Origin: a virus
Strand: one strand, 5' to 3'
Virus record (IMG/VR): IMGVR_UViG_3300049024_000077
Coordinates: 1 to 23,183 of that record
Length of the DNA stretch: 23,183 bases
Both the position numbers and the translations under genes were made by a program. A model generated the notes under the pieces. The model was not told the origin of the DNA and ran no database searches. It was given only the letters and a program-made list of their open reading frames with translations. How positions within the stretch are numbered: position 1 is the stretch's first letter; every line of letters starts with the position of its first letter. Shown in pieces: positions 1 to 11,294 of the stretch.

Positions 1-2
1 GG

Positions 3-563
3 ACTGTCAACGCTTCCACGGTCGCGCCGACCGTGGTCAACTTTCAGACGACCGTAGCGGCCAACAACGACGGCAGGCTTGTGTACGACGGTCGACGCCT
101 CAGCATCGGCGACGGGTCGGCCCCACGTACAGTTCACCATCCGCTTTCCGCCTACGTGATCTCGCACACCATTCAAGGTGACGACGGTGTCACGGACATC
201 CCCGGGGCCTCCATTTCAATGATCATCGAGAATAGCGAATGGGTCTATGTCCGAATTAGCGCCAAGCAGACTGTCGACGACTCGGGCGAGGCGCCGACGC
301 TGCTTGTCTCAGCGTCGAACGGCGTCGACAACGTTACTGCGCTGAACAACGGCGATGACGACGTCGCTTCAATTCAATTGCCGGCCACCACCGCGTCGAA
401 CCAAGCGAGGACAGTATCGCTGGTCACGCGGTGGAAGCCGACAAATGATGTCGTCGCGCCGAACAACACGAGTTGGACACTGCAAGCTCGGCACGACGTC
501 AGCGGCGGCGGTACGGTCAACCTGACCACCAGCAACGTGCTCTTTGAGGTCTGGTACGAATGA
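3..563 (+). CDS. Partial hypothetical protein, possibly a virion surface/tail component (5' end missing)
   Basis: The frame is open from the first bases of the window, so the gene begins upstream; a GTG at 33 is in frame but nothing marks it as the true start. The visible 186 residues have no Cys, are rich in Thr, Asn, Val and Asp, and look like an extracellular beta-sandwich: short alternating hydrophobic strands separated by Gly/Asn/Asp turns, ending in a hydrophobic-aromatic strand (NVLFEVWYE). This fits the C-terminal part of a phage tail, fibre or decoration protein, but I recognise no family motif. It converges on the lipoprotein gene that ends at 565, with one base between the stop codons. 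An exported host-like protein is the alternative. The ORF is convincing; its function is a guess from composition and context. Confidence 0.6.
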   Translation, partial: TVNASTVAPTVVNFQTTVAANNDGRLVYDGRRLSIGDGSAPRTVHHPLSAYVISHTIQGDDGVTDIPGASISMIIENSEWVYVRISAKQTVDDSGEAPTLLVSASNGVDNVTALNNGDDDVASIQLPATTASNQARTVSLVTRWKPTNDVVAPNNTSWTLQARHDVSGGGTVNLTTSNVLFEVWYE

Positions 564-564
564 C

Positions 565-1560
565 CTAACCTACGGGCCACGCGCACATAGGAGTACTGTC
601 TGCGATCGCCATGCCGCAGACCATCCCCGGTGCACAGTCGGCATCGTCGGAGCAGCGAGGGTAGCAAGCATCGCCCCAGCCGATTTCGTACGTAGTGCCG
701 ATGTCAGGAAGCGTTGGCGGGCACGAACCGAGCGGTAAACAAATGTTGCTCTCGCCGAAGTCCGCCGGCACGCAAGCCAAGTCCTCGCCGTAGCAAAGCG
801 TAGGCTGGCCGCTCTGCTGGTCGGTGGGGCACGGGCCCCAAAGCTGGCCGGCTTCAAAGAGAGGCTCCGTGCACAGTCCGTCGACGCACACGAGATCAGC
901 TCCGCAGGGACACGGCTCGCCGAGATCGCCTTTACATGCAGGAGCCTCGGCTTGCGCAAACTGATCGACGTGACAGGTAGGCCAGACCAACATCGAATCC
1001 TCGCCGCTCACGGCGACGCATGTCGCCGACTGTCCGTCGAAGCACCCGATACTGTCCCATGGGTGTGTGCTGACCTGCCCGGCGGCTCCCTCACATTGGT
1101 ACTCCGACCACGCGGACACCGTACCGGGTCCGATTTCGCAAGACGGCGCGACTTGGGTCCACCACGCTCCATCCCCCGCGTAGCATACCGACGTCCCGCG
1201 ATCGAAGATGGTCAGACACCGCCATTCGGGCAGCAAACCGCTTGGGTGTTCGCCTGCGCGGCAGGACTCGGCCGTCCATGCGTCAACGGGTGCTGCTTTG
1301 CCAGAGTCAATCAATTCGTCCAGCAAGCAACTTTCAACGACGATCGTCCACGCATCGTCCGCGGTGTTCAATCGTCCGTAGCAGATGTCAGCAATGGACT
1401 CTACGCAGCGGATTTCAGCCCAAACCGAAACGTCGTCACCGTCGCCGTCACCGTCTCCGACCTCGCCGGAAGTCTCCTCGCCGCCGTCTGTCAAGATTCC
1501 ACCCGGTGCGCAACCGAGCAGCATCAGCGACGCGACAATCGTGAACGCAACACACTTCAC
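565..1560 (-). CDS. Cys-rich outer-surface lipoprotein, Nannocystineae style (paralog of the next gene)
   Basis: This 331-residue protein has a classical lipoprotein signal: a short charged N-terminus, a hydrophobic core and the lipobox LLGC with acylated Cys17. A Gly/Asp-repeat linker (about residues 34-43) precedes the mature Cys-rich part. Residues about 48-230 hold several Cys/Trp modules, including PEWRC, GAWWTQV and LVWPTC. Residues 241-329 form a block that starts WGPCP and ends MCAWP. The same block, nearly unchanged, occurs in the upstream gene, so the two are paralogs. The start overlaps the upstream stop by four bases (ATGA), indicating translational coupling. The Gly-Asp linker plus EGF-like Cys repeats is a style I associate with Nannocystis-group myxobacterial surface lipoproteins. 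Function is unknown. If phage-borne, a role at the host surface such as blocking superinfection is possible but unproven. Confidence 0.85.
   Translation of the reverse strand: MKCVAFTIVASLMLLGCAPGGILTDGGEETSGEVGDGDGDGDDVSVWAEIRCVESIADICYGRLNTADDAWTIVVESCLLDELIDSGKAAPVDAWTAESCRAGEHPSGLLPEWRCLTIFDRGTSVCYAGDGAWWTQVAPSCEIGPGTVSAWSEYQCEGAAGQVSTHPWDSIGCFDGQSATCVAVSGEDSMLVWPTCHVDQFAQAEAPACKGDLGEPCPCGADLVCVDGLCTEPLFEAGQLWGPCPTDQQSGQPTLCYGEDLACVPADFGESNICLPLGSCPPTLPDIGTTYEIGWGDACYPRCSDDADCAPGMVCGMAIADSTPMCAWPVG
575..840. repeat. Direct repeat copy 1 (paralogous lipoprotein block)
   Basis: This segment encodes the WGPCP...MCAWP block of the shorter lipoprotein and matches 1748-2010 in the longer one at the DNA level, with long identical runs such as TGCGATCGCCATGCCGCAGA. 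Similarity at silent positions suggests a fairly recent duplication or gene conversion. Confidence 0.85.
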
Positions 1561-3041
1561 GGCTGCACCTCGCAGAATCCGTCGGCGCAGACCAGTCCGA
1601 GATCACATTGTCCGTTTGCACATGGACAACCGATCTGTCCGGCGGGACACGAAGTGCACCAGCCATCGCTGCACGTGAGATTCTCGGCACATTCGCCGCC
1701 AGGAAGACAGTTGCATCCGAGCGTGCCGGCGCATGATTCTTCACGCGGCCAGGCGCACATTGGCTGACCGTCTGCGATCGCCATGCCGCAGACCATGCCG
1801 TCTCCGCAGTCGTCGTCTGTCTCACATCGGAGATAGCAAGCATCACCCCACCCGACCTCGTGCATCGTCCCCCACGTCGGAGCGTCCGCGGGGCACGAAC
1901 CGAGCGGCAAACAGATGTTCGATTCACCGAAGTCAGCAGGCACGCAAGCCAGGTCTTCGCCATAGCAAAGCGTGGGTTGTCCGCTCTGCTTGTCGATCGG
2001 ACACGGACCCCACGCCTCGCCCGGCGCATACCCGGTCGGCCATGCGCAGAAGCCCTTGTTGCTTGCGTCGATCGGCGAGCACTCCAAATCGCCGCAGTCG
2101 TCAACGTTCTGCGTGCAGCCAGCCACACAGGCCGAATCGTGCAACACGCCTGAAAGTTCGAGCGGTAGGCCATGGTCGCAAGGCTCGGTACTCGTGGTGT
2201 TGGGCAGCGAGCAAACTTCGTTCCCGTTGTCTGCAACCGCGCAGATGAGTCCCGGCAAACAAGCGTCTCCGGGCATGCAGCGGCAACCGAGATCACCGTC
2301 AACGCACGCTTGACCGTCGCCGAGACACTCGGGCACGGGAGCCGGTGGCAGCATGTCGACCCAGCACGTCGGCCAGATCCTGAACGAGTCGTCGGCATAC
2401 TCTCCCGTGCACGACGTGATCGGATCGGTCAAGCAGCCTGTCGCGGACCAAGGGTTGGTCCCGACCGCCGAAGCCTCGCCGCAGATCGACGCTGGCCACG
2501 GTGCGACGGGCCCGGCCGGTGCATCGCACTGCGGACGGACCTGCGTCCACCACTGGCCGTCGCCCGAAAAGCACGCTGACGCCTGGGCCTGCTCCCTGAA
2601 CAAGCAGCGCCATTCCGGCATGAAGTTCGCGGGATGCTGACCGGGGGCGCACGTCTCGTCGGTCCATCCAGCGACGTCGCTTGCATCTCCCGTGGCTACC
2701 AGGTCATTGAGAACGCAGTCCGCCACTACGACCACCCATGCGTCTTCGGACCCGACGGGGAGGCCGTAGCAAACATCGAGTTCGTTGACTTTGGTGCAAC
2801 GGATTTCGGCGAATGCCGCCTCGCCATCGCCGTCGCCGTCGCCCGTCGGGTCACCGTCGCCGTCGCCTGATTCGGACGTGGCGCCAGTTTCTTCACCGCC
2901 ATCCATGGCGATATCTCCGGGCGCGCACGCGCAGAAAATGCCTACGGCAAGCAATGTGTGTAGTGACCGATAGGTCTGGCCGATTACAGATCGGTCGGGT
3001 AAACTAGAAGAGACCATCGAAGTAAAGATCTTGAATGTCAT
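1557..3041 (-). CDS. Larger Cys-rich lipoprotein, paralog of the downstream gene
   Basis: I chose the ATG at 3041 because AAAGGAAT lies just upstream; the frame continues to 3116 but that extension runs through a hairpin and does not look like protein. The 494-residue product has a long n-region, a hydrophobic stretch (about 29-38) and a lipobox ending at Cys39, followed by an acidic linker containing two Gly-Asp repeats. The body repeats the domain order of its neighbour: modules PEWRC, GQWWTQV and RIWPTC, then the WGPCP...MCAWP block. It adds about 60 C-terminal residues made of short Cys repeats (GCNCLPGG, IGCPCANG). No catalytic motif is visible. It is probably anchored in the outer membrane and disulfide-bonded. 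It is the first gene of a two-gene operon with a hairpin in its leader. Confidence 0.85.
   Translation of the reverse strand: MTFKIFTSMVSSSLPDRSVIGQTYRSLHTLLAVGIFCACAPGDIAMDGGEETGATSESGDGDGDPTGDGDGDGEAAFAEIRCTKVNELDVCYGLPVGSEDAWVVVVADCVLNDLVATGDASDVAGWTDETCAPGQHPANFMPEWRCLFREQAQASACFSGDGQWWTQVRPQCDAPAGPVAPWPASICGEASAVGTNPWSATGCLTDPITSCTGEYADDSFRIWPTCWVDMLPPAPVPECLGDGQACVDGDLGCRCMPGDACLPGLICAVADNGNEVCSLPNTTSTEPCDHGLPLELSGVLHDSACVAGCTQNVDDCGDLECSPIDASNKGFCAWPTGYAPGEAWGPCPIDKQSGQPTLCYGEDLACVPADFGESNICLPLGSCPADAPTWGTMHEVGWGDACYLRCETDDDCGDGMVCGMAIADGQPMCAWPREESCAGTLGCNCLPGGECAENLTCSDGWCTSCPAGQIGCPCANGQCDLGLVCADGFCEVQP
1748..2010. repeat. Direct repeat copy 2 (paralogous lipoprotein block)
   Basis: This is the partner of 575-840. 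It lies inside the longer lipoprotein gene, followed in that gene by extra Cys repeats absent from the short paralog. Recombination between the copies could delete or fuse the two genes. Confidence 0.85.
2822..2870. repeat. Short tandem GTCGCC-type repeat coding a Gly-Asp linker
   Basis: An imperfect hexameric GTCGCC/GTCACC repeat encodes, on the minus strand, two Gly-Asp runs after the lipobox. A shorter version sits at about 1436-1465 in the paralog. Such tracts are prone to slippage and so to linker length variation. Confidence 0.7.
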
Positions 3042-3046
3042 CGGGA

Positions 3047-3053
3047 TTCCTTT
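3047..3053 (-). promoter_or_regulatory. Ribosome binding site deciding the long lipoprotein start
   Basis: Read on the minus strand, AAAGGAA lies five bases upstream of the ATG at 3041. It is one of the clearer Shine-Dalgarno sequences in the window and is the reason for preferring 3041 over 3116. Confidence 0.7.
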
Positions 3054-3061
3054 GGTGGTTA

Positions 3062-3093
3062 GAGCACGGGTCCGCGGCAACGGACCCGTGCTC
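3062..3093. other. Perfect 13-bp hairpin in the lipoprotein operon leader
   Basis: GAGCACGGGTCCG (3062-3074) is exactly complementary to 3081-3093, with a six-base loop. It lies about ten bases upstream of the ribosome binding site of the long lipoprotein gene. No T tract follows it on the minus strand, and only AGTTTCG follows it on the plus strand, so it is not a typical terminator. A structured 5' leader, an mRNA stabiliser or a protein-binding site are all possible. Confidence 0.7.
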
Positions 3094-3280
3094 AGTTTCG
3101 CACAGCACAGTACCATGGGCAGGTACCTTTATGCCACAGGGGTGATCGCGCGCGTGCGTGAGAGCGCCACCTGCTGCCGTGCCTAGTTCATAGATTGGGC
3201 ACGCAAAGCACGCAAGGATTAACAGCGTGATTTTCGCGGGCGTGTCCGTGAGCTTACGCTACGTTTTTCCTTGCATCGCC
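3094..3280. other. Intergenic stretch, possible control region
   Basis: I see no gene here. The stretch contains a small direct repeat, GCACGCAA at 3199-3206 and again at 3208-3215, spaced one base apart like half-sites on one helix turn, and a weak inverted repeat around a GGTACC near 3115. No convincing -35/-10 pair is visible on either strand. If the small ORF at 3281-3538 is not real, the empty stretch extends to 3561 and would have to hold divergent promoters. Confidence 0.4.
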
Positions 3281-3538
3281 TCAGCACGTCGCCGTGCCGC
3301 TCGTATTCAGGTCCCATGCGCCGGGGCAGTAGAGCACTGCACCGCCGCTGAGCGTACAGGTCTTCACGTCGCCTTCGTCGATGGTCTCGCAGTCGGAGCC
3401 CAGTCCGCGACGCTGCCCGACGCAATCGGACTCGGTAGCAGCAGAACGGCGGCGGCGATGGTGGCGACCACTAGGGCCGCGATGTAGTCTCGCCGCGGCT
3501 CGCGCGGCGCTGTTCGCGGATCGGGTCGACGGATTCAC
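3281..3538 (-). CDS. Possible small Cys-rich protein, maybe frameshifted
   Basis: The last 50 residues look like a real disulfide-rich protein (SDCVG...GSDCET...KTCTLSG...LYCPGAW...TATC), similar in character to the other exported proteins in the window. The N-terminal half in the same frame is an Arg/His-rich run that does not look like protein. The adjacent frame over the same bases (about 3420-3490) reads YIAALVVATIAAAVLLLP, a good signal-anchor, but has no start codon of its own. Two compensating indels would join the pieces into a secreted protein. The GTG start at 3538 lacks a proper ribosome binding site. It could be a decayed gene or a chance ORF. Confidence 0.3.
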   Translation of the reverse strand: MNPSTRSANSAARAAARLHRGPSGRHHRRRRSAATESDCVGQRRGLGSDCETIDEGDVKTCTLSGGAVLYCPGAWDLNTSGTATC

Positions 3539-3561
3539 CTTGCGCGACTAGACTGATCCAC

Positions 3562-4161
3562 GTGGGCGACGCGAAGAAACGAACGATCTGGCACGGCGGC
3601 GATCCAGATCGCGCACTCAGCAAAGCGGAAGGTCTACTGGCCAAGCTGCGCGAGACGCCGCCCGAACACCGACCGAAGCAGATGACCATCCAGTATCTCG
3701 CTCACCAGTACCACGTGAGCGTGCAGACGATGAAAGGTCGCGTTGCTGATGCCGAGTCCAAGCGGCGTCTCAATGACTACGCCGACAACTGGCTGGAGAT
3801 CATCTACCAGATCGGCAACGTGCTCGGCGAGACGACGGCGGCGAAGACCTTCGCCATCGCGCATGACGTCAGCAACCGCAACGCCTTCAACGCGCAGAAG
3901 TTCATCTTGGAACGGACCGACCCGACGGTCTACGGAGCGACGGCCAACACGGTCGAACAAGCGCCCGCGCGGGCGTTCATTTCGGACGTGCCGCAAGAGG
4001 TGTTCGACGATCTGGACGAGGTCGCCGAACAGCAGTTGGCTGAGATCGAGCAGCTGTTCGCCAACGCGCAGTTGATGCTCACGCAGTGGGTGAGGCGGCA
4101 GCAAAAGAAGATCGCGGACCAACGCGTGCAGGAGGTTGACGCCGATGACACCGCCGACTAA
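3562..4161 (+). CDS. Probable terminase small subunit-like DNA-binding protein
   Basis: This 199-residue, mostly helical protein starts at GTG. Residues about 42-62 (IQYLAHQYHVSVQTMKGRV) fit a helix-turn-helix. A helical stretch then leads to AQKFILERTDPTVYG (111-125), closely resembling the 'LLERRDPERWG' signature common in small terminase subunits. The acidic, helical C-terminus would suit oligomerisation. If correct, it recognises the packaging site and recruits the large subunit. Against this, the large terminase gene is about 9 kb away on the opposite strand, whereas the two are usually adjacent. The next gene starts inside its 3' end. A phage regulator with a similar fold is the alternative. 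Confidence 0.5.
   Translation: MGDAKKRTIWHGGDPDRALSKAEGLLAKLRETPPEHRPKQMTIQYLAHQYHVSVQTMKGRVADAESKRRLNDYADNWLEIIYQIGNVLGETTAAKTFAIAHDVSNRNAFNAQKFILERTDPTVYGATANTVEQAPARAFISDVPQEVFDDLDEVAEQQLAEIEQLFANAQLMLTQWVRRQQKKIADQRVQEVDADDTAD
4130..4135 (+). promoter_or_regulatory. Consensus ribosome binding site AGGAGG
   Basis: This perfect Shine-Dalgarno sequence lies nine bases before the ATG at 4145 and directly abuts a TTG at 4136. It therefore places the start of the coiled-coil membrane protein at 4145, inside the end of the preceding gene. Confidence 0.8.
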
Positions 4162-4975
4162 TCGCCCTCTCCGATCAGTCACTGATCCCGACGTCGATGC
4201 TCTCGCTGACTCGCCGGTCGTGCTAGAAAACGAAGTGAGAGAGGAGATGCGAGCAGACGAACGCACGGAGCGAACGCGAGTCGCAGAATCCCTGCGAAGC
4301 ACCGATGACGGTGATGACGTCCCTGTATCTCGCAGCAGCCGAGCGCACCGCGATCGGGTGGTCTCGCGCGAAGACTCCGGCGTTCTTGCACGTGCTGTGC
4401 TCGATCAAGCTGACGCACTCGTACGCCGTCAATTCGGCGCGGGGCTGCCCGACGAAGCCAAGGCGTTCGCCGTCAAAATTGCACGCGAAGCGATCGATGA
4501 GTGGGCGCATCAACGCGAAGAGGCGTCAACGACGAGCACACGCCGAGTGCCCGCGTTTCAACCAGCGACGAGCACCGGGTTCGTGGTCTCGATCGTGACC
4601 GCAGTCGGGCTCGTCGTGGCCATCTTGATCGGTTCCGTGCTTGCGTTACGCATCACTGACCGGCTCGCGTCGATCGACGCCGCTGGACGCGAGCGCATGA
4701 CGGCGGTGGAAGCTCGTCTTGCCGAAGCCGAGAACAAACAGTTGGACTTGCGCAAGGACTACGACGCGAGTGTCAAGAGCAATGAGATCACCATCGCTGA
4801 CCACACCAAGCGCATCGGTCAGCTGGAAGCGCGTCAGAACATGCTCACGATCTACGTGATGGAGAGCCTGCGTCGCTTGTTGAAAGAGCGCGGCATCCCG
4901 GAGCCTGACGTGCCTCGCGGGCTGAGGATCGCCGAGATCGAAGCCGAAGATGCGCTACACCAAACACCGCAATGA
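4145..4975 (+). CDS. Single-TM coiled-coil membrane protein
   Basis: This 276-residue protein has three parts. Residues 1-140 are hydrophilic, very rich in Arg, Asp and Glu, and probably largely disordered, with one helical patch around 83-125. Residues about 146-170 form one strong transmembrane helix. Residues about 176-235 are a heptad-like coiled coil (ASIDAAGRERMTAVEARLAE onward), followed by an amphipathic helix and a short tail. There is no signal peptide. It overlaps the previous gene by 17 bases and the next by 4 (ATGA). Spanin-like lysis proteins and phage membrane-anchored scaffolds share the TM plus coiled-coil layout, but the TM is in the middle, not at the N-terminus, so I do not assign that role. 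Function unknown. Confidence 0.75.
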   Translation: MTPPTNRPLRSVTDPDVDALADSPVVLENEVREEMRADERTERTRVAESLRSTDDGDDVPVSRSSRAHRDRVVSREDSGVLARAVLDQADALVRRQFGAGLPDEAKAFAVKIAREAIDEWAHQREEASTTSTRRVPAFQPATSTGFVVSIVTAVGLVVAILIGSVLALRITDRLASIDAAGRERMTAVEARLAEAENKQLDLRKDYDASVKSNEITIADHTKRIGQLEARQNMLTIYVMESLRRLLKERGIPEPDVPRGLRIAEIEAEDALHQTPQ

Positions 4976-5292
4976 CTAACGCCAAACTGACCGCAGCACT
5001 CTCGGCCGCTCTCTTGTTCGGAGCTGGAACCGGTTATGCCGTTTCGGAGATGACCGCTAGCACGACCGGCGCCGGCAACCTCTGTGATCAATACCCGCGA
5101 CTGTGTGTGCAGTGCGGCATCACGGCGCCGTGCCCTACGCCCGCCGAAGGCGAGTGGCTCTGCTGCAATCTGTCTTCGGGGGTGTGCGTCGTCGCCAATG
5201 GAAGTTGCGAGGCGCCGAACGTGTTCGGCTACTGTGAGAACTACACCGAGAACGCGAACGGCTCGGTTACTTGTCACGATGAAGCTGAGTGA
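4972..5292 (+). CDS. Small exported Cys-rich protein (10 Cys)
   Basis: This 106-residue protein has an N-terminal signal or signal-anchor (TAALSAALLFGAGTGYAV). The rest contains ten cysteines, including an adjacent pair in EWLCCNLSSGVC, consistent with five disulfides outside the cytoplasm. Its ATG overlaps the preceding stop in ATGA, so it is probably translated together with the membrane protein upstream. There is no charged toxin-like or catalytic signature. It has the same style as the two exported proteins downstream (paired CC, short spacing) but does not align with them across its length. Possible roles include a virion or host-envelope protein; I cannot choose between them. Confidence 0.7.
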   Translation: MTNAKLTAALSAALLFGAGTGYAVSEMTASTTGAGNLCDQYPRLCVQCGITAPCPTPAEGEWLCCNLSSGVCVVANGSCEAPNVFGYCENYTENANGSVTCHDEAE

Positions 5293-5573
5293 CGCGCTGT
5301 CCGAGGCGCGCGGACCGGCAACGCTTGTGGGACTCGGACAGCGACCATTCGCTTCCGAGCGTGTTGAGCCGGCACCCCCGAGATCGGTTCCCGGCCCACC
5401 GGTCCGCGCAGCGAGAGCATGTCCCGGTGCGGTCACGCGACCAGTCCGGCGGGCTCGCCGAGAACAGCGAACACTCACCGGGGCACGATGCCGACGAGAC
5501 CGCCGAGACTGTTCGCTGTTTTCGGAGCGCGCGCCCGTGTGGATGGGCCCAGCGGCCGGCTCAAGCTCTAAGC
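5293..5573. ncRNA. Highly structured non-coding element with four long inverted repeats
   Basis: No protein-like frame covers this stretch. It contains four inverted repeats. IR1 is 5295-5305 with 5333-5343, 11 bp, perfect. IR2 is 5308-5318 with 5399-5409, 11 bp, perfect. IR3 is 5458-5473 with 5510-5525, 16 pairs including one G-U. IR4 is 5364-5373 with 5555-5564, 10 bp, perfect. IR3 nests in IR4, while IR2 crosses both IR1 and IR4, giving pseudoknot topology in RNA. A local UNCG-type tetraloop hairpin sits at 5350-5361. The element lies between two exported-protein genes and ends ten bases before the next ATG, which lacks a Shine-Dalgarno. It could be a trans-acting RNA, a structured leader, a packaging site or an origin. 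The strand is assumed from its neighbours. Confidence 0.55.
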
Positions 5574-5897
5574 ATGCAACACCGAACACTCCGCGCCGGG
5601 CTCCCGGCGCTCGCTCTCCTACTCGCCTCTGCATTCGTCGGCTACGCCAGCGCCGAGCCGCCGCAAGGGCCAACCGACAAGGACGATCGGCCGAATGGGC
5701 CGAAGGTCGTCATCAAAACCGAATACTTCTGTTGCGACTCCGTGGACCCGGGCGGCAACGACGGGGCCGGGACCGGCCAGGGCTGCGTGAAGACGACCGA
5801 GGACAACATCAACGGCTGCCGATTCTGGCTGGCGTGCCCCGGCGGGGCGACGGGCAGCGACGGCACCACCACGTGCACGAACCCGAAGCAGGACTGA
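5574..5897 (+). CDS. Small exported six-Cys protein (paralog of next gene)
   Basis: I place the start at the ATG at 5574; the upstream in-frame stretch is not protein-like and overlaps the structured element. The 107-residue product has a good signal peptide ending YASA/EPP, an acidic Pro-rich spacer, then six cysteines: a CC pair in TEYFCCD, then single Cys in QGC, NGC, LAC and TTC. Spacing is CC-16-C-10-C-5-C-12-C. The gene five bases downstream has almost the same pattern (CC-15-C-10-C-6-C-16-C) and the same YFCCD core, so the two are tandem paralogs. No Shine-Dalgarno is visible, and translation may depend on the folded leader. Function unknown; secreted and disulfide-bonded. Confidence 0.7.
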   Translation: MQHRTLRAGLPALALLLASAFVGYASAEPPQGPTDKDDRPNGPKVVIKTEYFCCDSVDPGGNDGAGTGQGCVKTTEDNINGCRFWLACPGGATGSDGTTTCTNPKQD

Positions 5898-5902
5898 CCG
5901 CC

Positions 5903-6184
5903 ATGACGATCCACGTACTCGCCATCACAGCCGCGCTCGCCATGGGCATCGGGTTCGGCGTCCAGCAGTCGAGCTCAGGCTGGGACAAGTCAAAGACGCA
6001 CTACTTTTGCTGTGACAAGACCGAGCAGGCCGACGAGACACACGACCGCGGACTCGGCTGTGATCGGATCACCAAATCCGAAGCAGCCAAGTGCGAGCGT
6101 GAAGTGCTCGAATGCCGCTCCAGCTGGACGTGGCAGAAAGCGAAGTTACCGGACGTCGTGACCTGTTACCGACCCAAAAAGTAG
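5903..6184 (+). CDS. Small exported six-Cys protein (paralog of previous gene)
   Basis: This 93-residue protein begins five bases after the previous stop. An N-terminal hydrophobic segment (VLAITAALAMGIGFGV) serves as signal or anchor. Six cysteines follow, with the YFCCD pair, LGC, AKC, LEC and a final VTC near the Lys-rich C-terminus. The Cys order matches the upstream paralog, although the residues between are poorly conserved, which suggests old duplication and diversification. The stop codon lies inside the stem of the terminator hairpin of the converging operon. Function unknown. Confidence 0.7.
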   Translation: MTIHVLAITAALAMGIGFGVQQSSSGWDKSKTHYFCCDKTEQADETHDRGLGCDRITKSEAAKCEREVLECRSSWTWQKAKLPDVVTCYRPKK

Positions 6185-6199
6185 CGCAGCGATCGCTAC
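6176..6199 (-). terminator. Rho-independent terminator of the long minus-strand operon
   Basis: Read on the minus strand, a six-base-pair stem GTAGCG/CGCTAC (6199-6194 with 6186-6181) with a seven-base loop is followed at once by TTTTT (6180-6176). It lies at the 3' end of the second XRE gene, as expected for the operon end, and overlaps the last codons of the converging plus-strand gene. Confidence 0.6.
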
Positions 6200-6423
6200 A
6201 CCTGCGGTTCGCTCTCGATCAGGTCGGCCGGGCTCACCCCGAGCGCTCGGGCGATGCGAAGCAAGTTGAGCAGACTGATGTTTCGCTCGCCTCGCTCCAC
6301 GCCGCCGATGTACGAGCGGTTCAGCTCAGCGCGCTGCGCCAACGCTTCCTGTGACAACCCTTGGCGCTCGCGTTCGGCTCGGACGCGAGCGCCAAAGCGG
6401 GCGAGCGCGTCAGCCCCCGTCAC
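6196..6423 (-). CDS. XRE-family helix-turn-helix regulator
   Basis: This 75-residue protein is a bare helix-turn-helix domain. It opens with FGARVRAERERQGLSQEALA, continues with RAELNRSYIGGVERGERN and ends in LLRIARALGVSPADLIE, the classic Cro/C1 layout (about residues 9-69) with no additional domain. It would bind DNA as a dimer, possibly at its own promoter. It overlaps the upstream XRE gene by 14 bases and is last in the operon, just before a terminator. Two adjacent XRE proteins suggest a repressor pair or switch, but no integrase is visible to support lysogeny. Confidence 0.88.
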   Translation of the reverse strand: MTGADALARFGARVRAERERQGLSQEALAQRAELNRSYIGGVERGERNISLLNLLRIARALGVSPADLIESEPQV

Positions 6424-6760
6424 CGCGCCGCCTCGCGTCGTGCGGGTGTTGCTGGACGAGATCGACGCGAGTCACCAGCGCGACGTCATCGTTGCTGCGC
6501 GAGGCGATCAGGTCGAACAGCTCGCGCCGCTCGTCGGTGCGCCCGATCTCGAAACTCTCGAACAGAGTGCTCGGCGAGATGCCGAGCCCCTGGCAGAGCT
6601 TGCGGATCGTGTCGATGCTGGCCGCGAAGCTGCCGTGCTCGATCCTGCGGATGGTGTCGGCCGAGAGACCGCTGCGCTGCGCGAGCGCTTCCTGAGTCAC
6701 GCCGCGAGCTCGCCGAAGCGACCGCACGTGCTTGCCGAATTCGTGTGCGTAGGCGCTCAC
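6410..6760 (-). CDS. XRE-family helix-turn-helix regulator with C-terminal extension
   Basis: I use the GTG at 6760, which overlaps the stop of the upstream gene as GTGA and has GGAG eight bases before it; an in-frame GTG at 6790 lies within the upstream gene. The 116-residue product has an XRE domain at about residues 9-65 (HVRSLRRARGVTQEALAQRS, then DTIRRIEHG and LGISPSTLFE) and a 45-residue charged tail containing DDVALVTRVD. It is a DNA-binding regulator coupled to the exported Cys-rich protein upstream and to a second XRE gene downstream. It could control the left-arm genes or act as an antitoxin-like partner; no toxin motif is visible nearby. Confidence 0.85.
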   Translation of the reverse strand: MSAYAHEFGKHVRSLRRARGVTQEALAQRSGLSADTIRRIEHGSFAASIDTIRKLCQGLGISPSTLFESFEIGRTDERRELFDLIASRSNDDVALVTRVDLVQQHPHDARRRGDGG

Positions 6761-7191
6761 GGGTGCGACTCCAGGCGCGACCAGCTGCACGCCGTGCTCA
6801 GACAGTTGCTACCGATCTCGGCGCCGTAGGTCTGTCGCATGAACAGCGCCGCGCTGGAACAGTCGTGGGGCTCGTCGCAGCGACACGTGCAGTGCTCGCC
6901 GGCGCAGAGCGTTCCGCGATCGCAGGGCAACACGAAGTCCTCGCCGCAGTCGATCGACCAATGATCCGTGCCGCCGGTGTCCGCCCCCGCGCGCGCGACC
7001 GGCTGACCTTCGCGGGGCATGCAGAGCGCCGTGCGGCGGAGCGGAGCGGGTGCCGGGACGCTCGAGCGCGTAGGCGTCTTGGCGGGAGCAGTAGCGGGTT
7101 CGGGCGGGGGCGAGTGACGGGCGACGTGGAGGCCGTCCACGAGCGCCACAGGGAGACTCAGCGCAAGGAAGAACGAGAGGCGTCGGTGCAT
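6757..7191 (-). CDS. Small exported Cys-rich protein coupled to XRE regulators
   Basis: The ATG at 7191 is chosen because it opens a signal peptide (RRLSFFLALSLPVALVDG); upstream in-frame sequence is low-quality Arg/Pro-rich translation. The 144-residue protein has a Pro/Ala-rich spacer, then a Cys-rich C-terminal half with ten cysteines (for example LPCDRGTLCAGEHCTCRC and HDCSSAALF). The stop overlaps the GTG of the next gene by four bases, so an exported protein and a transcription regulator are probably made together. It has no visible homology to the plus-strand six-Cys pair. The function is unknown. Confidence 0.65.
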   Translation of the reverse strand: MHRRLSFFLALSLPVALVDGLHVARHSPPPEPATAPAKTPTRSSVPAPAPLRRTALCMPREGQPVARAGADTGGTDHWSIDCGEDFVLPCDRGTLCAGEHCTCRCDEPHDCSSAALFMRQTYGAEIGSNCLSTACSWSRLESHP

Positions 7192-9836: not shown

Positions 9837-11294
9837 CTACTTGGCCGGGTCGAAGGCCCAATTCTTCAGCGAGATGTCTCGCTTGCTCGGCCCCTCGCGC
9901 CCGTCGATCTTGACGGGCTCGCCCTGCTCGGCCCCGCGCATCCGGCTCACGAAGGTGACGGTGCGCATCGCCGCGACAGCGTCGGCGAGCGTCCAATCTT
10001 CCTTGCGTTTGCGCAGCAGTCGGAGGTTGCGCTCGATCGGCGTGCGGTCCAGCGAAGCCTTGCGGCTCCACTCGGTTTTGGCCCACGCCTCCAGCTCGGC
10101 CGCGCCCATGTTCACGGTCTCGTGATAGCGGGCGAACGCGGTGTCGATGCGCTCGCGCTTCGCTTCTTCGGAGAGGTCACCGCACGACGCGAGCCACAGC
10201 GTCTCATCGATCGCGTCGTCAATCTCGGGCCCCGCGTCGGAGATGGGCTGCTCTGCACACGCGATCGGCAGCGCGAGATCGTCGTACCAGACTTCGCACT
10301 CGGTCGCCGTCCAGCCCTCCGACGGCACGGGGCCCGTGTAGTCTTCGCCGGGCTCCAAGTACGCGAGGGTCAGGTGCGGCGTGTAGTCGTGACTGACGTG
10401 CGCCACGTCGACGCCACACGCGGCCACGGCTTCGCGCAGTGCATCATGCAGCGCGGAGAGTTGCGCCGTCGGACGCACGCGCATGAACGCGACGCGCTGC
10501 TCGTTGTCGAAGTAGTCGACGCCGTCGAAATCGATAGCTAGCGCGGGCGTCTCGGCGAGCACGCGGCGGACCGCGTCCAAGATCGGGACGACCTTTTGGG
10601 GGTGCACCTTGCCGACGTAGAGCAGCGTCACGTGCGGGGCCGAGGTCTCGTTGCTCTTGTAGGGCACCCACTGCGCGACGCGTTTCGGGGCGCGCAGCAT
10701 GACGCCGACGGTGTAGCGGGCTTCGTTGCGCGCCGCTGCGTCGCGGACCTTGTCGCCGGTCGGCGCGGGTTCGGCTGCGGGCAGCTTGCCGTTGCCTTGC
10801 AACACGACGCGCTTGACCTCGCTCAGCGAGTAGCGGGGCTTGCCACCGAGCACGTTCCAGCCTTCGATCAAGCCGGCCCTGTGGGCTCGCGTGACGCGAA
10901 CCGTCGGGATGCCGAACTCGGCTGCGATCTTCGGGGCCTCTACAGCGTCAGCGGGCAACGGGTTTTGCGACCACAGCAGATCGACTTCGCTCGGCTCGCC
11001 CTCGCTGTCTTCTTCGTCGACGGGCGCAGGGGCGTTCGGACCGGTTGGCGCTGGCACCGGTTTCGGCGGTGCAACGCGCTCGGGAAAGACTGCGGCGATG
11101 TTCTCGGGCGTGAAGAACGTGGACGCGACCGCGAGCATGAAAGCGCGTCCGGCTTCGACGGGGATGCCCTCGGGATAGAGCGCCTGCAACAGCTGCACGC
11201 CGCCCGTGAACACGCCGACGGGAGCGAGCGCAGCGTCGTCTTGCGCGTCCAGGTCGATTTCGGGACGGAAGTAGTCGTCGGTCAACGCCGCCAC
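9837..11294 (-). CDS. Multidomain protein: 2H phosphoesterase domain plus DUF3140-like C-terminus
   Basis: This 485-residue protein starts 12 bases after the portal gene. Residues 1-75 resemble no domain I know; 76-110 is a Pro/acidic linker. Residues about 118-165 look like a DNA-binding helix-turn-helix/wing (FGIPTVRVTRAHRAGLIEGW then RYSLSEV). Residues about 190-345 are a 2H phosphoesterase, with both catalytic motifs intact: HVTLLYVG (His221, Thr223) and HLTLAYLEPG (His307, Thr309). Residues about 386-485 resemble DUF3140 (RYHETVNMGAAELEAW, LLRKRKEDWTLAD, SLKNWAFDPAK). 2H enzymes cleave 2'-5' or cyclic phosphodiesters; phage Acb1 of this superfamily destroys CBASS signals, and its family is linked to DUF1073 portals. 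Defence evasion is plausible, as is a capsid-associated RNA role. Confidence 0.85.
   Translation of the reverse strand: MAALTDDYFRPEIDLDAQDDAALAPVGVFTGGVQLLQALYPEGIPVEAGRAFMLAVASTFFTPENIAAVFPERVAPPKPVPAPTGPNAPAPVDEEDSEGEPSEVDLLWSQNPLPADAVEAPKIAAEFGIPTVRVTRAHRAGLIEGWNVLGGKPRYSLSEVKRVVLQGNGKLPAAEPAPTGDKVRDAAARNEARYTVGVMLRAPKRVAQWVPYKSNETSAPHVTLLYVGKVHPQKVVPILDAVRRVLAETPALAIDFDGVDYFDNEQRVAFMRVRPTAQLSALHDALREAVAACGVDVAHVSHDYTPHLTLAYLEPGEDYTGPVPSEGWTATECEVWYDDLALPIACAEQPISDAGPEIDDAIDETLWLASCGDLSEEAKRERIDTAFARYHETVNMGAAELEAWAKTEWSRKASLDRTPIERNLRLLRKRKEDWTLADAVAAMRTVTFVSRMRGAEQGEPVKIDGREGPSKRDISLKNWAFDPAK

What the first reader, a model, noticed from the sequence alone, without database searches (positions are those of the whole stretch)
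565..3041. Two host-style Cys-rich lipoproteins on a phage arm, related by duplication
The pair has lipoboxes, Gly-Asp linkers and Cys modules that I associate with Nannocystis-group surface lipoproteins, yet lies in an otherwise phage window. Part of the DNA is nearly identical between the copies. Phage lipoproteins in other systems block receptor use by later phages (for example T5 Llp), so superinfection exclusion or surface conversion is a plausible role. The genes also help to identify the host group.
Basis: partly seen in the sequence, partly recalled or inferred. Interest (0 to 1): 0.72.

Follow-up and report, generated by a model that had tools for sequence, protein, structure and literature searches.

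The report
Phage lipoprotein pair beside tail-fibre gene
An uncultured phage carries two related cysteine-rich lipoprotein genes head-on against the gene for its host-recognising tail-fibre tip, an arrangement repeated in other phages, which suggests that the lipoproteins protect the infected cell's surface from further phage binding in the way coliphage T5 does with its small Llp protein.

Summary
The pair is real: lipoprotein A (565-1560, minus, 331 aa) and B (1557-3041, minus, 494 aa), overlapping by GTGA, share an N-terminal Cys domain (43% aa) and a C-terminal module (74% aa). They are old paralogues under purifying selection. "Nearly identical DNA" is overstated (72% over the module, 82% at best). 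The window is a phage fragment (TerL, portal, PolA, RNR).

ORF 3-563 (+), whose stop lies 1 nt from A's, is the C-terminal tip of a tail fibre. Homologous tips in two other phages cap complete fibres, and the model has a TNF-like lectin fold (Z 12). In all four loci where this fibre or tip could be read with its downstream flank, an exported Cys-rich protein gene lies tail-to-tail within 53 nt; the three with enough flank hold a tandem pair. One locus, fetched by the fibre N-terminus alone, still held the lipoprotein domain (E 8e-15), its only copy in 97.5 kb. Lipoprotein similarity follows the fibre tip, not the phage backbone.

The best reading is a receptor-masking (superinfection-exclusion) lipoprotein paired with its receptor-binding tip, analogous but not homologous to T5 Llp. 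The host (Myxococcota) and the blocking activity are untested.

The parts
3..563 (+). C-terminal tip of a tail-fibre / receptor-binding protein, truncated by the contig end; converges on lipoprotein A with 1 nt between the two stop codons
   Evidence: 53% and 44% aa identity to the tips of complete fibres in L005 and L004, whose N-termini match PHROG tail-fibre families; model with TNF-like lectin fold
565..1560 (-). lipoprotein A, 331 aa, lipobox LMLLGC, GDGDGD linker, N-terminal Cys domain plus C-terminal Cys module
   Evidence: homologue in L004 (45% aa) and remote homologue in L011
1557..3041 (-). lipoprotein B, 494 aa from ATG 3041 (SD AAAGGA), degenerate lipobox GIFCAC, same N-domain and C-module plus extra Cys modules; its stop overlaps A's start (GTGA)
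925..1425 (-). N-terminal Cys domain of A (motifs AEIRC, GDGxWWT, WPTCxVD)
   Evidence: alignment A4; profile hit in L011 E 8e-15
2313..2816 (-). N-terminal Cys domain of B
   Evidence: alignment A4
574..873 (-). C-terminal module of A (WGPCP...CAWP), copy of the module in B
   Evidence: 74% aa, 72% nt over 100 codons, dN/dS 0.16; direct repeats
1746..2048 (-). C-terminal module of B, followed by CxCLPGxxC...DGxC type Cys modules
3062..3093 (-). perfect 13-bp inverted repeat (6-nt loop) in the leader 20 nt upstream of B's start; possible operator or leader hairpin
   Evidence: (z -4.5); a 12-bp hairpin lies at the same place before the first lipoprotein gene of L004

Best explanation
The two genes form an operon of phage lipoproteins that works as the self-protection partner of the neighbouring tail-fibre tip. 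After infection they are made, exported and anchored in the host outer membrane through their lipid-modified Cys. Their disulphide-rich domains occupy or distort the surface receptor that the TNF-like fibre tip recognises. Further phages of the same receptor type are then excluded, and progeny are not lost on infected cells or debris. Shown: coding, paralogy, lipobox (canonical in A), phage location, fibre-tip neighbour, recurrence of the convergent arrangement, and co-variation with the tip. Inferred: outer-membrane location, receptor binding, exclusion, timing of expression and host.
For: (1) Position: the fibre-tip gene and lipoprotein A meet tail-to-tail. In L004 the gap is 11 nt, in L005 the ORFs overlap by 4 nt, in L011 the gap is 53 nt. 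(2) Predictive check: L011 was fetched with the fibre N-terminus only and still carried the lipoprotein N-domain beside the fibre (E 3e-14; 8e-15), the only match in its 97.5 kb record. In L004's 94.9 kb record the only significant match is also at the fibre. (3) Co-variation: L004 and L011 share TerL (74%) and fibre N-terminus (61%), but have unrelated tips and lipoproteins only 28% alike. L004 and the window share no TerL, but have tips 44% and lipoproteins 46% alike. (4) The tip model matches TNF-like lectins and phage receptor-binding heads (Z 12.1 to BC2L-C; phi812 spike and phage 1358 RBP about 8.6-8.8). (5) Precedent: T5 Llp lies adjacent and downstream of RBP pb5 and blocks FhuA (PMC9586334). 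BF23 has a non-homologous Llp beside its RBP Hrs, and that pair recombines as a module (PMC4728585). (6) dN/dS of about 0.1-0.16.
Against: No sequence similarity to any family in Pfam, PHROGs, NCBIfam or PADLOC, nor to solved structures. At 33-50 kDa they are far larger than T5 Llp or the roughly 6-kDa Rtp45. B's lipobox is degenerate. Only four loci from two phage lineages. Physical linkage alone could make tip and lipoprotein travel together. L005's lipoprotein is cut by the contig end. No expression or binding data. The fold of the lipoprotein could not be predicted (pLDDT 42).
Confidence: 0.5

Rival explanations
1. Lysogenic or surface conversion 'morons': the end of the fibre gene is a hotspot where phages gain host-benefit genes. 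The lipoproteins alter the host surface (adhesion, recognition, predation) and have no specific link to the fibre tip.
For: Opposite strand to the fibre, modular Cys repeats, further exported proteins nearby in the window (4972-6184) and in L011; HTH-like regulators in the window.
Against: The same N-domain family, not assorted genes, sits at this site in three records of two lineages and nowhere else in the two long records; similarity follows the tip.
Confidence: 0.25
2. Fibre accessory factor: the lipoproteins are needed to fold, assemble or carry the fibre tip, or are virion proteins.
For: Tight linkage to and co-variation with the tip.
Against: Lipid anchor and export signal, opposite strand, many Cys expected to need an oxidising compartment; typical fibre chaperones are cytoplasmic and co-directional (general knowledge).
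Confidence: 0.1
3. Decoy: the lipoproteins bind the fibre tip itself (not the receptor), titrating incoming virions at the cell surface.
For: Lipoprotein variants track tip variants; large, multi-domain ectodomains after a long Asp/Gly linker suit surface display.
Against: No binding data; a decoy on cells could also trap progeny, which is costly.
Confidence: 0.1
4. Lysis-related outer-membrane lipoprotein (spanin-like).
For: Phage lipoproteins of the outer membrane include o-spanins (general knowledge).
Against: Size, Cys content, duplication and fibre linkage do not fit; no lysis cassette was recognised beside them.
Confidence: 0.03

Closest known systems
T5 Llp / BF23 Llp (receptor-blocking lipoproteins beside the RBP genes oad and hrs)
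   Same: Phage lipoprotein gene adjacent to and downstream of the receptor-binding protein gene; varies with the RBP type
   Different: No detectable sequence relation; several times larger, Cys-rich and multi-domain, in tandem pairs, on the opposite strand to the fibre; blocking not shown
Cor of T1-like phages and Rtp45 of phage Rtp
   Same: Lipoproteins that exclude superinfection by acting on an outer-membrane receptor
   Different: Those are small lipoproteins; no homology found here
TNF-like lectins (BC2L-C N-domain, PLTL) and phage RBP heads
   Same: Predicted fold of the fibre tip
   Different: Fold match only (8-13% sequence identity); this is the partner gene, not the lipoprotein

Membership tests
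Llp/Cor-type superinfection-exclusion lipoproteins | Lipoprotein signal peptide with lipobox | tested here: met
   A: MKCVAFTIVASLMLLGC; L004 C: VLGC; L011 M1: VIAGC. B: GIFCAC, degenerate. By inspection; no SignalP run
Llp/Cor-type superinfection-exclusion lipoproteins | Gene next to the receptor-binding protein gene (T5, BF23) | tested here: met
   Fibre tip adjacent in the window, L004, L005 and L011
Llp/Cor-type superinfection-exclusion lipoproteins | Sequence homology to T5 Llp (solved as PDB 8A60) | tested here: not met
   Profile against all PDB chain sequences gave no match at E 1; no phage record matched
Llp/Cor-type superinfection-exclusion lipoproteins | Small size (under about 100 aa) | tested here: not met
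   331 and 494 aa; relatives 156-351 aa
Llp/Cor-type superinfection-exclusion lipoproteins | Blocks phage adsorption by binding the receptor | not testable with these tools
   Needs expression in the host and adsorption or plating assays
Phage tail fibre (neighbour ORF 3-563) | Fibre N-terminal attachment domain | tested here: inconclusive
   N-terminus lies outside the contig; met in relatives L004, L005, L011 (phrog_6859, phrog_2617, phrog_1858)
Phage tail fibre (neighbour ORF 3-563) | Receptor-binding head fold | tested here: met
   TNF-like lectins and phage RBP heads, Z 8.6-12.1, on a medium-confidence model (pLDDT 60.5)
Nannocystis-group (Myxococcota) surface lipoproteins | Homologues in Myxococcota genomes | tested here: inconclusive
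   Two pattern scans of genome contigs gave no relative, but exact short motifs are insensitive and no host genome could be set as a search centre

The most novel reading that the evidence does not exclude
A new family of large, disulphide-rich, tandem phage lipoproteins that co-evolves with a TNF-like lectin fibre tip as an exchangeable 'attach and then lock the door' cassette across unrelated phages, blocking either the receptor or the tip itself by a mechanism unlike the small Llp/Cor/Rtp45 proteins.
Probability: 0.35. Interest if true: 0.68.

Novelty: new variant of a known kind. Interest (0 to 1): 0.52.

Why it matters
It would extend receptor-blocking superinfection exclusion beyond the small lipoproteins of coliphages to unrelated, large Cys-rich proteins in uncultured phages, and it names a receptor-binding tip and its likely partner that can be tested directly. 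The tip-and-lipoprotein linkage also gives a search rule for finding further exclusion proteins: look at the gene converging on the fibre tip.

Tried and rejected
Single-protein viral scans with A or B found nothing; the A+B alignment found L004. Known phage and plasmid records: no match to B, to L004's lipoprotein (plasmids), or to L011's lipoprotein and the window's fibre tip (phages). A TerL scan for close relatives of the window phage found none. Genome scans for a host origin were empty, and a Myxococcota search centre could not be set. The TIGR02232 myxobacterial Cys repeat has no match in the window. The lipoprotein structure model was too poor to search (pLDDT 42). No sigma-70-like promoter in 1-3800 and no Rfam family in the window was found. 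A PapG_C hit on L004's tip (21 bits against a cut-off of 20, 54 residues) was set aside as weak. Infectious bursal disease virus VP2 matches to the tip model reflect the shared jelly-roll. 'Recent duplication' was rejected on dS. Chimera was rejected on recurrence of the arrangement and uniform GC. L012 (fibre N-terminus only 40% alike over 40 residues) has a co-directional gene after its fibre and no lipoprotein; it serves as a contrast, not as a counter-example, because its tip is different. A tblastx comparison of the window with L004 gave mostly noise and was not used.

Full report
OBSERVATION. The minus strand of 565-3041 encodes two Cys-rich proteins. A (565-1560, 331 aa, GTG start) has a clean lipobox, MKCVAFTIVASLMLLGC, followed by APGG and a GDGDGD linker. 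B (1557-3041, 494 aa) starts at ATG 3041 behind AAAGGA. Its lipobox-like GIFCAC is degenerate, but the residues after the Cys (APGD, then an Asp/Gly linker) match A. B's stop overlaps A's start in GTGA, so the genes are probably co-translated. They are paralogues: the N-terminal Cys domain is 43% identical over 165 residues and the C-terminal module 74% over 100. The claim of nearly identical DNA is overstated: the module is 72% identical (82% in its best 131 nt), dS is about 1.4 there and saturated in the N-domain, and dN/dS is about 0.1-0.16. The pair is therefore an old duplication kept by purifying selection.

PHAGE CONTEXT. The window is a virus record with TerL, portal, RNR, PolA, ThyX, dNMP kinase and a C5-methyltransferase. 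GC is even across the region. A and B match no family in Pfam, PHROGs, NCBIfam or PADLOC and no solved structure.

THE NEIGHBOUR. The ORF at 3-563 (+), which runs in from the contig end, stops 1 nt before A's stop codon. Its sequence is 44% and 53% identical to the C-termini of two complete proteins in other IMG/VR records: L004 (UViG_3300037755_000828, 94.9 kb) and L005 (UViG_3300022562_001038, 7.2 kb). The N-termini of those proteins match PHROG tail-fibre families (E down to 9e-12). An AlphaFold2 model of the window tip (pLDDT 60.5, medium) has a TNF-like jelly roll. The best matches are the BC2L-C and PLTL lectins (Z 11.4-12.1), and phage heads (phi812 spike, cyanophage A4, phage 1358 RBP) score 8.6-9.0. 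It is thus most probably the receptor-binding tip of a tail fibre.

RECURRENCE. L004: lipoprotein C (351 aa, 45% to A) converges on its fibre with 11 nt between, and a second Cys-rich lipoprotein D lies directly upstream of C. L005: an ORF ending in the Cys module GCTCLPAEICTGNSVCHDGTCF overlaps the fibre stop by 4 nt but is cut by the contig end. L011 (UViG_3300009095_000001, 97.5 kb) was fetched with the first 72 fibre residues only. Its fibre has a different tip and is followed, convergently, by M2 (156 aa) and M1 (about 205 aa, lipobox VIAGC). M1 matches the lipoprotein N-domain profile at E 3e-14 to 8e-15 and is the only match in that record; in L004's record the only significant match is also the one at the fibre. 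If a single gene were placed at random in 97.5 kb, falling within about 600 nt of the fibre's end on the right strand would be expected in under 1% of cases (my estimate).

CO-VARIATION. L004, L005 and L011 share a backbone (TerL 74-80%, fibre N-terminus 60-61%). The window has an unrelated TerL. Yet the window's lipoproteins are 43-46% identical to L004's, with tips 44% alike, while L011's M1 is only 27-29% identical to any of them and its tip shows no similarity. Lipoprotein similarity thus follows the tip rather than the phage. Physical linkage can explain part of this, because a recombination that swaps the tip will carry its neighbour. What linkage does not explain is that the same protein family stays at that site when the tip is different.

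LEADER. A perfect 13-bp inverted repeat (3062-3093) lies 20 nt upstream of B's start (RNA fold z -4.5). L004 has a perfect 12-bp repeat 16 nt before the first lipoprotein gene of its pair, and L011 a weaker one. Arms that long occur in 0.2-0.5% of random 70-mers from these records. It may be an operator or a leader hairpin.

MECHANISM. Coliphage T5 keeps llp adjacent to and downstream of its RBP gene, and Llp jams the receptor FhuA from within (PMC9586334). BF23 keeps a non-homologous llp beside hrs, and the two recombine as a module (PMC4728585). Rtp45 does the like on LptD (PMC12685063). By anatomy the present pair is the same kind of arrangement with an unrelated and much larger protein. 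I commit to receptor masking / superinfection exclusion (0.5). Rivals are conversion genes at a fibre-end hotspot (0.25), a fibre accessory (0.1), a decoy that binds the tip itself (0.1) and lysis (0.03). The steps shown are the genes, the paralogy, the lipobox of A, the neighbour, the recurrence and the co-variation. The steps inferred are surface location, binding, exclusion and timing.

MEMBERSHIP. It works like Llp at most. Homology and small size were tested and not met, so it is not filed as an Llp or Cor family member.

HOST. The Nannocystis/Myxococcota assignment rests on resemblance recalled from memory (Asp/Gly linkers, Cys repeats). Two pattern scans of 84,980 species were empty, and a taxon-centred search could not be set up from a virus record. 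It remains open.

VERDICT. Observation confirmed with corrections; interpretation partly supported, and strengthened by the fibre-tip linkage. A new variant of a known kind, interest about 0.5.

Noticed in passing
window 4972-5292, about 5574-5897 and 5903-6184, plus strand: Three more small predicted exported Cys-rich proteins; two share a YFCCD motif. No family match for the first and third (PHROGs).
   Followed up: partly
L005 1872-4196 minus: A 774-aa protein that reads as a portal protein followed by an HTH/excisionase-like segment and a C-terminal region matching a family of unknown function (phrog_7998), which resembles a sigma-54-type AAA+ activator domain by eye; an unusual fusion for a portal. 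L004 has a 76% identical counterpart.
   Followed up: no
L004 12321-13538 plus: A 405-aa lipoprotein-like protein with a very long Gly-Asp repeat on the other side of the fibre, before TerL; weak phrog_18306 match.
   Followed up: no
window 6199-6471 and 6413-6808, minus strand: Two adjacent ORFs similar to each other (40% aa), probably HTH regulators; one resembles regulators in L005 and L008, the only other similarity found between the window phage and that lineage.
   Followed up: partly
window 9837-11294 minus: ORF next to the portal gene with a LigT / 2'-5' RNA ligase-like phosphoesterase domain (PF13563), a fold seen in phage anti-defence phosphodiesterases (general knowledge).
   Followed up: no
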